A DNA stretch of 64,000 nt, from positions 558,001-622,000 of the forward strand of contig JAACJP010000015.1 in assembly GCA_013368375.1 (NCBI GenBank). The letters run 5' to 3'. The position numbers and the translations under genes were made by a program. The stretch is from Tricholomella constricta. Its lineage: Eukaryota > Basidiomycota > Agaricomycetes > Agaricales > Lyophyllaceae. Below are positions 50,548 to 57,395 of this stretch, piece after piece. Below the pieces are notes generated by a model that saw nothing but the letters and a program-made list of their open reading frames with translations, made no database searches and had not been told where the DNA came from. Every line of letters begins with the position of its first letter. Within the stretch, counting starts at the first letter, position 1.

Positions 50548-50557
50548 CGATTCAAGC
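50548..50557 (+). repeat. Left target-site duplication of the MULE
   Basis: CGATTCAAGC immediately left of the element, repeated in direct orientation at 55177-55186. Ten base pairs is in the 8-11 bp range typical of Mutator-like elements. Confidence 0.85.
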
Positions 50558-50614
50558 GAGTATGTACCAAAGACGTAGAAGTAGAACTCAGAAATAGACC
50601 TCGGAAGATGCCGA

Positions 50615-50754
50615 CTTCTACTATCTACCGTGACTTCTACTATCTACCGTGACTTCTACTATCTACCGTGACTTCTACTATCTACCGTGACTTCTACTAT
50701 CTACCGTGACTTCTACTATCTACCGTGACTTCTACTATCTACCGTGACTTCTAC
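50615..50754 (+). repeat. Seven 19-bp tandem repeats in MULE left subterminal region
   Basis: CTTCTACTATCTACCGTGA repeats seven times without change (50615-50747), followed by a 7-nt partial unit. Each unit contains CTTCTAC, the complement of the GTAGAAG word in the terminal repeats, so the array multiplies a terminal motif. It may serve as transposase-binding or enhancer sites (inference). Confidence 0.92.
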
Positions 50755-51064
50755 GCTCCCCTCCCGCCCTCCCGCCCTCATGCCGCCTTCCCGCCTCCTG
50801 TGTGCTTGGGCCTCGCTGATGTGCCTTCTCAAAGCGGTCCTGCTTGCTGGTCCAGTGTCCTGCCCGCTTTCCCCTCTATGTCCTTGCAGAGACCCGACAC
50901 ATTGACCTTCCGCGACCTGTCTTCAGGCTTTGGGCCTCGCTTTCGCGAACTGCAGTAGATAACCAAGCCTATCTCAAAGCGCCTTCACGATGTCAAAGCT
51001 CGTTTCTGTAATATAAAATACTTGTTTTTTTGCCGCAGCATGGCGCTACCTCAATATCGAAGCT

Positions 51065-54000
51065 ATGCCTCAAGACGATTCAGACTGCACTGAACTTGAA
51101 CAACTCATAACGTTTGCGGGAAGAGAGAGGCTCATAGAGTATCGGGATTCAGTAAGTTCTCATTTCTCTCAACTTTACATCACGATCTAATCAGTGGTTG
51201 TAGGCTTTTCCTATCGAATTGCGGCAGATCAGTCCTGCATATTTTGCTGTCGAGAACGCCGAAAAGTGGGCTGTAGTTTCCAGCTTGCGCGACTGGTTGA
51301 CACATCACCTTCAGTCTACCTTGGTAACATCACGCCACAATTCCTCTTCACCGAGTACTCCCGACGCACCACAGCCATCGAGCGCTAGAAGACGCACTAC
51401 TTACACAACTTCAAATGCTCTCGAAGATTCTCAAGGAACTTCACGCTCTCCTCCTGCCACACGCGAAAATTTTCCACCACCTGTCGAGGCCGAAATCATC
51501 GATGACGACATCGTGGAGGTGCTTGACGTTAGGCCCAGTACGAAGCGCAAACGTGGAAGAGCCTCCGTTGCGACTGAGGTCATTGATCTATCAGATGATT
51601 CGGATGCACCTCTGGAGAAGAAAATACGATTTAAACTGCAGCCTCGCATCAAGATCACACGCCAACTTACTGTCAATGAGGTCATCCCACTCTACGAGTT
51701 ACCGACTCCTTGCTGGACTGTTCCAGCTGATGGCTGCGATGTTGCCTATCTTCTAGACTTGCGCGATGATGGCAGGGAATGGCGGGACAATAATGGTGAC
51801 CTGATTTCCATGTCCGGCATAATCAAGTCACAGGTATGTGTCTCACCGTCGACTTGTAATGAAACTCTAATAAAGCTCTATTCACAGGATCAAGATGCCT
51901 GGAAAGGTACTGCAGGATCACTTGGGAAGCCAACCACTATGAAAGATGTTCTCGATGGTGTTGAATGCCAGCGCTCATCGTACACTTGTCAAGGTATCGT
52001 TCACTGTGGCCAGTTGAATATGGGCCTTCTTGTAGACATTCAGCGCTACGAACCAACATTGGAAGATAGGAAGGATATCTGGGAGGCAGAAAGAGCAGTG
52101 AACGTGCAGCAGGGCTCGACAATCGAATCACTTGTCGCTACGTGAGTCCGCCCTTCAATCTTCGCACTTCAGCTAATCTTATTCATGGCACCTTTTAGAT
52201 TCTACAACCAGGTCATGAGGATGGCCTGCCCCTATATCGACGAGGAGTTGCAGGGCGAGCCAGTGCAGTGCCAAGGTGTTGCTGTCATACGGCGATTGAA
52301 GAATGTGCGTAAAAATCAACACCTTCACAAGTTGGATTCTGATCCACCTCCTTTAGCCAAACTTTGACGGTCAATATTGGTTTGTTGGTTGCTCCGGTTG
52401 GTCCATGGATCGCAAGAAGGGTCATAGGGCAATCTCGATTCCTCCGCAAATTGATGGCGACACACTTGCTGATCTCTTTAAAAATAAGGGAGTCTTCACT
52501 GCTGAAACCTCAAGCATGCATAGGATCGATACCGGTGAATGTGCGTTTGTGACCACATGTAGGAGCGAAGCTAAAGGGAAGAAAGTGTGCCGTATGTTGC
52601 CTGTGATTCTCCCGTCATTGATGAGACTAATTTTCCTACAGCATATACACATATCCAAGACTCGACTGCCATTGTCGGAAACCTGGTTTCTCGCTCTTGT
52701 CCGTCGAAGCTTTTAATATTTTTGCCCATTGATCGTACGGACCGTCGTGCAATTGTCGTCCTTGAGAAAGCACACAACCATCCTACACCACCGCCGACTA
52801 AAGTCACTCGTGAGGGAAAGGAGAAATATGAGGAAGCTATCCGAGCAGTGGGCCCAGCTGGTTTAACAGTTGGAAAATGTGATCGGGGTATGTAGAGCTT
52901 GATGAAATATGTTCGTGTATGCGGAACCTAATACACATCCAATTTACTTGCTTTATCCAGCCCAGACAACACGCAACATCATGGGTGGACACGATCCCGC
53001 ATCGTTGGATCCAGCTTTAGCAAATACACGCATCAAGCGCAAGATCCTTCATAAAATCAAGACGGCGGAAGCACCACATGGAACAGGATTACACGGTGCA
53101 GATAATTAGTGATTAATCTGTGCTAGGACTGCATCTGACAACTCTACCTCTGTTTAGCCCTCTATGATCTGATTAAGAAGGAGCGTGATAGCCTGCCATT
53201 GGACCAGCGGTACATCCATGAGGTGACCTCGCGTGACGGTGTAGACATGGTGATTACCATGCTTCCGGCACTCGCACAGTGTGTTCATTCAGCTAAGGCT
53301 ACTCTGCACGATAATACCTACAAACGCACTCATGATCGGAAATGGAAAGAATGGGAGGTCGTTGTTTGGAATGACAGGTTCAACATCCGTGCGTTGTGAT
53401 CATTACCAGCTGTTTTCTCATCTCATTGCCCATTCCAGGCCTCACAATTGCTCGGATATACTGCACCCATGAAACGCGTGCTGCATATAAGCAAATGTGG
53501 ACTGGATTGTGGGATACATTCGCGCGAGTGACTGGTAAGGCTGTCCAGTTTGCATTTTTGAATGGAACTGGACTACTGGCAATCCTCGTCGACGGCAACA
53601 AGCCTCAGGTTGAGGCGTGCAGAGACGATCTTGTCACACGTGCAAGCATTGCCGGATTCCCTGAGAAGGACCCTCAGTTGATAGTGATGCACATCGTTCG
53701 GACATGCATGGTTCATCTCAACCGGTGCGTCATTTATCCGCATGTTGCTGATTGTGACTGACGAGAAGTCAGTTTCTTTGACGAACTTGCTAACCATATC
53801 CCTCAAGAAGTACTGGACCGAGTGCGGCTCTTTCCATTTCTTGAGACCGATGCCAAACTCGAGAACTTCAAACTTTTTTGCAAGACTTCGCCACATAAGA
53901 AACTGCGAGGTGAGGAGTGTAGTATCTCTTCAGCACCACTGAAACTGATCAACAATCTTTTCATAGACTGGTACAAGGATAAAGAGCCTCATCCTTGGTT

Positions 54001-54935
54001 TTTTCCTTCAGTCATGCGACACTTCTCGAAGATTCCTCGCGACCGATGGTTTCTTACACCGGGAGACACCAATCTCAATGAAAGTGCGCACCCGTATACC
54101 AACAGCTTCACTGGTATAAACTTATCACTTCTCGATGCTATTCAAATGTGCATCTTCTCACATTCCGAAAGCTGTCAGTGATGTTGATCTTGCCCACAGG
54201 GCGCGTACTCTTGATTTGCAGATGTCCGAGAAACTTCGATTGGCAGAGGAGAACCACATCACCCCCAGACACCGAAATACTGTATCCCAACGCATGCACC
54301 TTAACATTCTCAGGAGGCAAGGCCAAATTCGAAAGAAGCTGCAGCATAACGAGGAATTGGGACTGGCTGAAGATATTGAAGCAGAACTTGAAGAAGAGGC
54401 CGAGCTTCGACGCGCATCCAACACTCGAACGAAGGAGCTAAAGGAGAAGAAGAAAGTGATGCAGAGTGTAAATGGTGTCCTTAAACGACGTCAACCTGGG
54501 AAGGCGCGTAAAGGCAAACCTAGTGCTCTGGAGCCCGATGACTGCGACCTCGATTCCTCCCGAGTCACAAACTCTCCAAGATCTCGCAGCTCCGGCAGCC
54601 CTGACCCTCTCGACACCCAACCGGAAGACTTCTTGATTGCAGATAGCGACGACCCGCAGTTATCTGCCAATGATGAGCTCCTCAAATATGCCGATGCTCC
54701 CCAGCACTTCGGATCAATGGCGGAGACTGACCAGGATGAGTCGTCATTGCAGCTTGATGATGAGCTGACTACGCTTCCTCTTCCTCAGAGCGAGGAGACC
54801 CTTGCTGTCAACACCTCCCTCCTGGATGATCCCGAATTCCTGGAACGCCTTCTGTCTTGGAAGCCGACGCACGAGGAGTCACTTGAAATCCAGAATCATT
54901 ACGACAACATTTTCACTAGTCAATACTCAGTGTAA
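51065..54935 (+). CDS. MULE-type DDE transposase with a Cys/His zinc-binding domain
   Basis: Twelve exons (51065-51151, 51204-51833, 51888-52141, 52199-52304, 52357-52591, 52642-52887, 52961-53095, 53158-53388, 53439-53724, 53773-53909, 53967-54147, 54179-54935) give a continuous 1,094 aa. Residues about 120-200 are disordered with a basic KRKRGR patch and acidic DLSDDSD. A WRKY/GCM/FLYWCH-like zinc module follows: NFDGQYWFVGCSGW, ECAFVTTCRSEAKGKKVC, then VVLEKAHNHPTPPPTK. Candidate catalytic acids: Asp in TLHDNTYKRTH, Asp in LLAILVDGNKPQVEAC 77 residues later, Glu in GDTNLNESAHPYTN about 130 residues further on. The C-terminus is a coiled-coil and acidic tail. The last intron would be only 31 bp, the weakest join. 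No internal stop or frameshift was found. Start chosen as the ATG that opens the frame before a GTAAGT donor. Confidence 0.85.
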
Positions 54936-55176
54936 CACGTAGACAGACGAAGTATTGATCAAATCTATTATCAGTTGCCTATATATAACATGTATTGCCC
55001 GCCGCCAAATCCTAAAGCGGCGGGGTGGCACACGCCGCCCCCCATGGCCAAGCGAGCCTCGCGCGCCGCCACCGTAGAAGTCGGGAGGTAGCGTAGAAGT
55101 GGGGGTGGCCGCTGTAGAAGTCAGCTCGTCGCTGTAGAACTCCGCCAGTTCTACTTCTACGCTTTTGGTCATACCT

Positions 55177-55186
55177 CGATTCAAGC
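55177..55186 (+). repeat. Right target-site duplication of the MULE
   Basis: CGATTCAAGC, the direct repeat of 50548-50557, immediately after the right terminal repeat and 165 bp before the next start codon. Confidence 0.85.
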
Positions 55187-55351: not shown

Positions 55352-57395
55352 ATGGCTGCCATCGACTCCCCCAAACGCAGCGCGTTCTTATTCCCCTTCT
55401 TTCGCCGAAACAAGGACAAGCCTCCTCCCCCCGCCGAGGTCGGGGAGGTCAACCACCGCAAAGCCCTGGTCCAGGAGGGCCACAAGTACCTAGCCAAAGC
55501 GACAGATTTGATCAACAACCGGGACCACCAACATGCCTTTGAGCGCGGCCATCTCGAACTTCTCCAAGACCGATGGGCCGAGTGGGTCGCTATCATCTAA
55601 ATTCCATGTGCGCCCTTGCCTAACACCCCATCTCTAAGACTATATGGCTCCGCCCCCAAGGGCAAGAAACTCACCAAGGGACTGCTCGCACCTGAAGAGT
55701 TCCGTGAAAAGTCCAGGATCCTAATGGAAGATGTTCAGGTGTGTCACGTCTCTGCTGTCTTGAGAGCCTCATAGAACGCCCTGCAGGCAGCCTTCGACGG
55801 CATCAGGCTAGACCGCAGCGTGCCTTCATCATCCCATCACGGCGATCCCATGTCACAGCCGCCACCCCCCCTGGAGGCAAGTCTTTCCCCCTTCAATAAT
55901 TCATTGATGTTCATCCTCTCACGCTTACTCTCAGCATAGCATGTCAATCCGGAGGGAGCCCTCCCACCGCGCGCATTCCACCACTTTACGAGACCCTGGC
56001 CCAGTCCCGATAATCGCTCCTCCCCCCGAACGTTCCGGATCCTACAAGGAGGAGCGCCGCTCCTCCCGCAAGGTAAGAATCCAAACCCATCGTCGCCTTT
56101 TCTCTTGACACTCGCGCAATTCTCATCCCCCACACACACCAGAGCTCCACGCGCCACCGTGCCGCCGAGGAGCCCATTGCCGAACACGCAGAGGTCTCGC
56201 GGGAGAGCAGCAAGTCCCACCGGCACCGCAAGGCAAGTGTCTCCTCCATCCTCCATCGCTCCGTCTTCATCGCCATCGCTCCCTCCCTTATCCACATCTC
56301 AATTTCCACCTCCCGCAGGACCGATCCAAATACGACGACGTCGACGAACACCACCGCTCGTACCGAGATCGAGATCGGCCTCGTGACGATCGAGACGAGC
56401 GGCGGCGCGGGGACGATCGTGACCGTGACCGCGACCGCGAGCGCCGCAGGGATGACCGCTACGACGGGCACGGGCGGCGGAGGGACGAACGCTACTACTA
56501 CGACCGCGACCGCGAGCCTGAACGTGAGCGGGACAGGGAGAGGGAGAGGGACAAGTACAAGGAGCGAGACCGGGATAGGGACAGGGAAGACCGACATAAA
56601 GACCGGTACCGGGAGCGGGAGCGGGAGCGGGACAGCGATCGTCATCGCAAGGACAGCCACCGCAGCGATCGTGACCGTGACCGCGACCGGGGGGATCGTG
56701 AACGGTACTACCGGGACGATCGGTATTACTATGATGAGCGGTCGGATGAGCGACGGCGGCGGGGCAGCGAGGACAAGGGAAAGGACAAGGACAAGGACAA
56801 GGGCAAGGGCAAGGATAAATACCGGGAGGAGCGGCCTCGACGAGAACGCAGCCACCGGGCGGAGGAGGAGGAGATGATCCCGGAGGACCCGGAGGGTGAG
56901 GTGGTGGAGCATCATCGTGGGCACCACGCCTCGCAGCAGGGGATGATGATGGCACCGCCGCCGCCGCCCATAGCCACGACGCCGACGTTCATCCCATACC
57001 CCTCCGACGACGAGAAGCCGCGACGCGATCGTGATCGTGATCGGGACCGGGATCGAGACCGCCGGACGCGCAGCAGGCGCGAGGACCGTGACCGCGACAG
57101 AGAGCGAGAGAGGCACCATCATCATCATCATCATCGAAGTCGAAGTCGAAGCCGGGACGGCAGCGGCCGCCACCATGAACCCGAACACGGACACGTACAC
57201 GAGCAGCATGACGCTCATCATGTAGCGGTGCCGGAGTTGGTTGCAGGTCAGGACGAGTCTGATCAGCTGGCGCCGTTAATGATACCCCCTCGCAGAGCAC
57301 CCCCCACCACCATCGAACCCGAATTCCGATCACGATTCCAGGAGGATTTCTCGTCAATTTACGGAGGGAGCAGCGCCGGAGGAGCTGTAAGGTGA
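55352..57395 (+). CDS. Arg-Asp dipeptide-repeat protein
   Basis: Function unknown. Six exons (55352-55581, 55639-55738, 55787-55876, 55935-56072, 56143-56232, 56319-57395) give 574 aa. Introns 3 and 5 use GCAAGT donors (GC-AG introns); the other three are GT-AG. Residues about 15-115 are a helical region (NHRKALVQEGHKYLAKATDL, FERGHLELLQDRWAEL, KLTKGLLAPEEFREKSRILM) that looks folded, perhaps MIT-like. From about residue 215 the protein is dominated by RD/RE/DR dipeptides (RDRDRDRERRRDDRYDGHGR, KDKDKDKGKGKDK), with a short Pro run, a 7-His run followed by RSRSRSRDG, and a conserved-looking end (PEFRSRFQEDFSSIYGG). Mixed-charge RD/RE tracts occur in nuclear-speckle RNA-processing proteins; that placement is inference. 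The MULE sits just upstream. Confidence 0.72.

What the first reader, a model, noticed from the sequence alone, without database searches (positions are those of the whole stretch)
50548..55186. Complete, apparently autonomous Mutator-like element with 10-bp target duplication
The 10-bp direct repeat CGATTCAAGC, roughly 30-bp terminal inverted repeats and a 1,094-aa transposase free of stops or frameshifts across 12 exons all coincide. The transposase combines a Cys/His (HNHP) zinc module with a DDE-type core and a long acidic coiled-coil tail. Intact target duplication and intact coding sequence point to recent movement. This is the strongest candidate in the window for an active, perhaps undescribed, transposon family.
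Basis: partly seen in the sequence, partly recalled or inferred. Interest (0 to 1): 0.85.

Follow-up and report, generated by a model that had tools for sequence, protein, structure and literature searches.

The report
Divergent mushroom Mutator-like jumping gene
A mushroom genome carries one complete, undamaged-looking 'jumping gene' whose enzyme is so unlike its relatives that the standard protein library misses it, although its fold, active site and insertion scar place it with the Mutator-type transposons first found in maize.

The parts
50548..50557 (.). left target-site duplication CGATTCAAGC (9-bp reading: 50549-50557; 11-bp reading: 50548-50558 with one mismatch)
50558..50588 (+). left terminal inverted repeat (~30 nt, imperfect)
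50575..50582 (+). GTAGAAGT motif inside left TIR
50613..50754 (+). 7.5 identical copies of a 19-bp subterminal repeat (GACTTCTACTATCTACCGT), 8 ACTTCTAC motifs facing the opposite way to the TIR motif
51065..51151 (+). exon 1 of transposase (start ATG 51065)
51204..51833 (+). exon 2
51888..52141 (+). exon 3 (codes conserved Cys266, Cys273, Cys279)
52199..52304 (+). exon 4 (conserved Cys334, Cys348)
52357..52591 (+). exon 5 (conserved Cys371, His382, Cys421, Cys437)
52642..52887 (+). exon 6: His441, Cys457 and His482-Asn-His484-Pro, WRKY-GCM1-like zinc module
52961..53095 (+). exon 7
53158..53388 (+). exon 8 with first catalytic Asp616 (codon 53310-53312)
53439..53724 (+). exon 9 with second catalytic Asp693 (53591-53593) and CxxH Cys731/His734 (53705-53716)
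53773..53909 (+). exon 10
53967..54147 (+). exon 11 with Trp810 and catalytic Glu821 (54080-54082)
54200..54935 (+). exon 12, charged helical then probably disordered tail, stop at 54933-54935
   Evidence: homologue model
55074..55139 (+). right-end array: three GTAGAAGT (55074, 55093, 55114) and a GTAGAA (55134), spaced 19, 21 and 20 bp
55147..55177 (-). right terminal inverted repeat (edge 55176 or 55177), with one ACTTCTAC at 55153
55177..55186 (.). right target-site duplication CGATTCAAGC

Best explanation
It is a complete, probably autonomous class II DNA transposon of the Mutator (MULE) superfamily, from a divergent Agaricomycete lineage, sitting outside any recognised coding domain in Tricholomella constricta. 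Shown: the element anatomy; an intact 12-exon reading frame (predicted); the conserved catalytic triad, CxxH, Trp and zinc ligands; a homologue's predicted fold closest to the IS256/MULE class; and motif arrays confined to both ends. Inferred: the N-terminal WRKY-GCM1-like zinc region binds the GTAGAAGT arrays; a multimer pairs the two ends; the DDE site cuts the element out; and it joins it to a staggered cut 9-11 bp wide, leaving the flanking repeat.
Against: No Pfam family at E<=10 for either gene model, and no transposase family among the 25 shown of 40 families matched by 42 homologues. The window locus is not among the 12 PF10551 matches in its own genome. Foldseek against PDB gave no match at E<=0.001 and its top rows are unrelated; the ISCth4 match comes from re-aligning Foldseek's 1000 best. 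The fold belongs to a homologue, 46% identical over the searched region, and the stretch around its catalytic Glu is of middling confidence (pLDDT 67-71). The best profile alignment to A3 runs from the finger only to about the first Asp; the longer one does not reach the Glu. The canonical-MULE profile did not match the single C9 relative (score 19.8). TIRs are short and imperfect for a MULE. Single copy; no expression, empty-site or mobility evidence.
Confidence: 0.9

Rival explanations
1. A member of another long-TSD DDE superfamily that shares the CxxH motif and a helical insertion domain (hAT, P, Kolobok, Dada, Transib) or a distinct unnamed superfamily beside MULE.
For: The C/DxxH motif is shared by hAT, Kolobok, P, MuDR and IS256, and Dada (DxxH) is reported from Laccaria bicolor (PMC3706591, passages read). 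Direct sequence similarity to MULE is weak and Pfam MULE does not match.
Against: TSD 9-11 bp with TIRs, against 6-7 bp in Dada and no TIRs in Dada-U6/U1; hAT usually 8 bp (PMC12730594, passage). ISCth4 (IS256) scores 11.3 against 7.8 for Hermes and 7.2 for Transib, and ISCth4 also tops the MULE control, although the runners-up differ there. C457 and HNHP align with the canonical MULE finger.
Confidence: 0.1
2. A domesticated transposase, kept as a host gene, whose old element ends happen to survive.
For: Single copy, intact frame.
Against: Ends and TSD are intact on both sides; subterminal repeats are identical. None of the 54 homologues is from Lyophyllaceae by the names listed (families recalled), and the nearest in the tree are Jaapia and Plicaturopsis. 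This is weak, because only the 7,984 candidates sharing most words were scored and the host's own protein was not listed either.
Confidence: 0.04
3. A recently dead or silenced copy: complete in sequence but no longer moving. (Compatible with the best explanation; it concerns only present activity.)
For: No second copy, and no deletion derivative found with the TIR patterns or either end's DNA.
Against: No disabling mutation visible in the frame or at the three catalytic codons.
Confidence: 0.45

Closest known systems
Canonical Agaricomycete MULEs with Pfam PF10551 in the same genome (e.g. C6:643713, C7:889137)
   Same: Order of modules (zinc finger ending in HNH, then D..D..CxxH..E), ISCth4 as nearest solved fold (control P0061), TIRs with 9-10 bp TSDs
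   Different: Those have GGATAA...TTATCC ends, an uninterrupted ORF of 615-664 codons, and match Pfam; this one has 1,087 aa in 12 exons, extra conserved Cys/His groups, other ends, and no Pfam match
Sister clade of the C9/C30 elements in the same genome (161 proteins at E<=0.001, 120 listed)
   Same: Same catalytic, CxxH, W and zinc columns; profile match E 6.9e-34
   Different: About 23% identical, 6.56-kb element, HSH in place of HNH in the C9 protein, different TIR
IS256-family transposase ISCth4
   Same: DDE RNase H core with helical insertion domain carrying CxxH (PMC7780238, passages; fold match)
   Different: Bacterial, helix-turn-helix N-terminus, 8-bp TSDs, copy-out/paste-in
Muta1/Muta5 MULEs of Aedes aegypti
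   Same: N-terminal zinc finger plus DDE, CH and W; Muta5 has 9 copies of a 15-bp subterminal tandem repeat (PMC5225508, passages)
   Different: Transposases of 416-554 aa, 8-9 bp TSDs, multi-copy
Dada (Laccaria bicolor and others)
   Same: DDE with C/DxxH, long many-exon protein (PMC3706591, passages)
   Different: 6-7 bp TSDs, no TIRs in the U6/U1 families, CCCC and CCHC zinc fingers, RNA-gene targets in several families

Membership tests
Mutator-like elements (MULE) | 8-11 bp target-site duplication | tested here: met
   10 bp perfect (9 or 11 bp in the symmetric readings); range from PMC6446971
Mutator-like elements (MULE) | Terminal inverted repeats (14-500 bp in the survey) | tested here: met
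   ~30 nt imperfect, 0 of 2000 shuffles as good; range PMC6446971, passage
Mutator-like elements (MULE) | DDE triad with CxxH and W between second D and E | tested here: met
   D616, D693, C731xxH734, W810, E821; each kept in 39-42 of 42 and 34-37 of 37 relatives; feature list PMC5225508
Mutator-like elements (MULE) | N-terminal WRKY-GCM1/FLYWCH-type zinc finger (often) | tested here: inconclusive
Mutator-like elements (MULE) | Significant match to Pfam MULE (PF10551) | tested here: not met
   0 families at E<=10; not among the genome's 12 PF10551 matches. This is an annotation criterion, not a biological definition
Mutator-like elements (MULE) | Homology of the transposase to known MULEs by profile or fold | tested here: met
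   hhalign 57.0 against 12.4-24.3 in 20 shuffles; ISCth4 best re-aligned fold for this family and for the MULE control
KDZ | KDZ transposase domain (PF18758) | tested here: not met
   no Pfam match; profile score 11.6, no better than reversed (13.3), small KDZ alignment; locus not among the listed rows of 157 KDZ matches in the genome, list cut short
Dada | 6-7 bp TSD | tested here: not met
   9-11 bp; Dada definition from PMC3706591
hAT | usually 8-bp TSD, and hAT transposase | tested here: inconclusive
Active transposon | Excision and reinsertion | not testable with these tools
   needs strains or an assay

The most novel reading that the evidence does not exclude
This clade and its sister (C9 type) are an unrecognised deep lineage of MULE-type transposons in mushroom-forming fungi, invisible to Pfam. 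It has an unusually large DNA-binding half (13 conserved Cys/His, perhaps resembling a GCM domain rather than a single FLYWCH finger) that reads 19-bp-spaced GTAGAAGT arrays inverted with respect to the terminal site. It could be a relative of the transposase from which animal GCM transcription factors were recruited.
Probability: 0.25. Interest if true: 0.6.

Novelty: new variant of a known kind. Interest (0 to 1): 0.45.

Why it matters
Some 215 database proteins (54, 161; of the 174 listed, one carries a precomputed Pfam domain, an AAA ATPase) are, on this evidence, transposases that current annotation mostly calls hypothetical. That would inflate host gene counts and hide transposons from repeat masking. 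One complete element with both ends, an intact predicted gene and mapped candidate binding sites gives a testable starting point for a fungal MULE tool and for how this kind of zinc domain reads transposon ends.

Tried and rejected
My first gene model had 11 exons and 1,104 aa.

Pfam on the protein: nothing. Pfam on 42 of the 54 homologues: only weak chance-like matches, best E 0.012; 25 of 40 families were shown. PDB by sequence profile: 6 matches, best E 0.43, none a transposase. Foldseek against PDB: 0 matches at E<=0.001, top rows unrelated. Foldseek against viral models: one match at E<=0.001, an uncharacterized bracovirus protein (E 6.3e-11), not identified further. UniProt names beginning 'MULE transp' on P0215 and P0227 did not repeat as a Pfam match here, so they are not used as evidence. 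A first profile comparison with only four MULEs was weak (score 37.1, P 0.0017, reversed 22.8); deeper alignments raised it to 47.0 and 50.2-57.0. The canonical-MULE profile did not match the single C9 protein (score 19.8).

KDZ and Dada were considered and rejected. The paper on TET/JBP-carrying fungal transposons (PMC12730594, outline and passages) and the RNase H superfamily survey (PMC3985635, passages) showed, in the passages seen, no match to this family. PMC6446971 was seen as outline, Introduction and passages; its one 'Basidiomycota' mention is in a Hop sub-group. Literature searches were (listings only, apart from the papers named); no listed title or abstract start named this family, but Repbase and closed journals were not searched. 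Horizontal transfer was considered: the tree of 50 sequences puts the element with Jaapia and Plicaturopsis (support 0.87 for that trio) on a long branch of 0.57; without close relatives nothing is concluded. Domains of flanking ORFs: no Pfam match at E<=0.1. TSDs of canonical MULEs were read for three of the five copies fetched (L045, L046, L047); L044 and L048 were not resolved.

The GTAGAAGT motif was chosen after looking at the ends, so its confinement to them carries no independent chance figure.

Full report
Observation. The element described is there. The 10-mer CGATTCAAGC stands at 50548-50557 and 55177-55186, with an expectation of about 0.0003 for a chance 10-bp match over 17x17 placements. 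Just inside, the two ends are inverted repeats of about 30 nt with mismatches and a 1-nt gap; the terminal 60-nt stretches align with score 49, and 2000 shuffles reached at most 31. The strict 10-bp reading leaves asymmetric ends. A 9-bp TSD gives symmetric GAG...CTC ends; an 11-bp TSD with one mismatch gives AG...CT ends. In the same genome a relative on contig C12 (L018:2325-7174) has AG...CT ends and a perfect 11-bp TSD (CACACTGTACC); its ends match in 21 of 23 columns within the outer 31 nt. One of two tandem relatives on contig C9 fits AG...CT with 10 of 11 bp; the other C9 copy shows no TSD at that spacing. So the edge is uncertain by one base and the TSD is 9-11 bp.

Gene. Between the ends lies one gene on the + strand, 51065-54935, 12 exons, 11 GT-AG introns of 48-73 nt, 3,264 nt of exons with the stop, 1,087 aa, no internal stop. 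Introns 10 and 11 were placed with the help of the family alignment after a first 11-exon model. No RNA evidence was available.

Host. The best hit for the C9 relative is a Tricholomella constricta protein on a contig of 1,071,764 bases, exactly the length of contig C9 of the window's assembly. That record is only 88% identical to my C9 model, presumably because the gene models differ. The host is therefore taken to be T. constricta, Lyophyllaceae. The element ends 175 bases upstream of a possible ATG at 55352; the short ORF there has no Pfam match.

Relatives. 54 proteins at E<=0.001 among 7,984 scored candidates, 31-48% identical, all 54 named hypothetical or uncharacterized proteins of mushroom-forming fungi (class recalled), none with a precomputed Pfam domain. 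The host's own protein is not in that list. Within its own genome the element is alone: the protein finds its own exons (8 of 15 matches) plus distant relatives on C12 (4), C9 (2) and C30 (1). Left-end DNA, right-end DNA and the left TIR pattern at up to 3 mismatches find only itself. The right TIR pattern at up to 2 mismatches finds both of its own ends and one further 2-mismatch site, with 2+4 hits for the reversed control. The C9 elements (6.56 kb, 100% identical to each other) belong to a sister clade: 161 proteins at E<=0.001 (120 listed) among 7,996 candidates; the C9 protein matches the window-clade profile at 6.9e-34, 23% identity.

Catalytic core and zinc region. In an alignment of 42 window-clade and 37 sister-clade proteins (36 plus the C9 model), D616 is kept in 41 and 34, D693 in 40 and 37, E821 in 41 and 37, W810 in 42 and 37, C731 in 39 and 34, H734 in 39 and 36; most departures are gaps, with single N, K, Y and G substitutions. 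The zinc ligands C437, H441, C457, H482 and H484 are kept in 37-41 of 42 and 32-34 of 37. Seven more N-terminal Cys and one His are conserved in both clades (C266, C273, C279, C334, C348, C371, H382, C421; at least 90% and 78%), so the DNA-binding half may hold two or three zinc sites rather than one (the site count is inference).

Ends as binding sites. GTAGAAGT or its complement occurs 13 times in the 64-kb window, all in the two ends of the element and none between 50760 and 55060. On the left one copy sits in the TIR and eight lie inverted in a perfect 19-bp tandem array (50613-50754, 7.5 units). On the right one sits in the TIR and three lie inverted, with a shortened fourth, at spacings of 19, 21 and 20 bp. 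This mirror layout suggests transposase binding sites; binding is inferred, and the motif was picked after seeing the ends. An insect MULE, Muta5, has nine 15-bp subterminal tandem repeats.

Mechanism and status. Most likely the zinc region binds the arrays, ends are paired, the DDE site cuts and joins, and a 9-11 bp staggered target cut gives the TSD. Three canonical MULE copies of the same genome show 9-, 9- and 10-bp TSDs. Intact frame and flanks suggest a young insertion, but the single copy gives no age and no proof of activity; I put a still-mobile copy at about even odds.

Verdict. The finding is real and the MULE label is right in substance, with a divergent lineage that the family library used here misses. 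It is a new variant of a known kind. The word 'undescribed' cannot be tested without Repbase.

Noticed in passing
G000 C9:514665-521222 and 521326-527884 (L019, L020): Two tandem, same-strand copies of a 6.56-kb sister-clade element, 100% identical, about 100 bp apart; the second fits an 11-bp TSD with one mismatch, the first shows none. Could be local transposition or an assembly duplicate.
   Followed up: partly
G000 C30, L021:466-5882: A third copy of the C9-type element, 84% identical over 5.5 kb and missing about 1 kb at one end.
   Followed up: partly
G000 C9:660879, L053:1308-1529: Solo relic of one end (76% identical over 238 columns) of the C12 relative, so that family once had more copies.
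   Followed up: partly
G000 C7, C30, C6 (L045, L046, L047): Canonical PF10551 MULEs with GGATAA...TTATCC ends and 9- or 10-bp TSDs; two copies of one family are 99.8% identical over 6 kb, so canonical MULEs here may have moved recently.
   Followed up: partly
G000 whole genome: 157 KDZ (PF18758) matches, many with equal scores: a large KDZ expansion, age not examined.
   Followed up: no
BFVD O92526 (Bracoviriform inaniti): An uncharacterized polydnavirus protein has a predicted fold like this transposase family (E 6.3e-11, TM 0.45 by target); it may be a captured MULE. A MULE survey lists 'Ichnovirus' among hosts of its Phantom group.
   Followed up: no
P0235 (Exidia glandulosa): A sister-clade transposase record with a C-terminal AAA ATPase match (4.8e-9): gene capture or a merged gene model.
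   Followed up: no
56109-57395: Long + strand ORF of Arg/Asp/Glu/Ser-rich repeats (RDRDRD..., RS-like) just downstream, no Pfam match.
   Followed up: no
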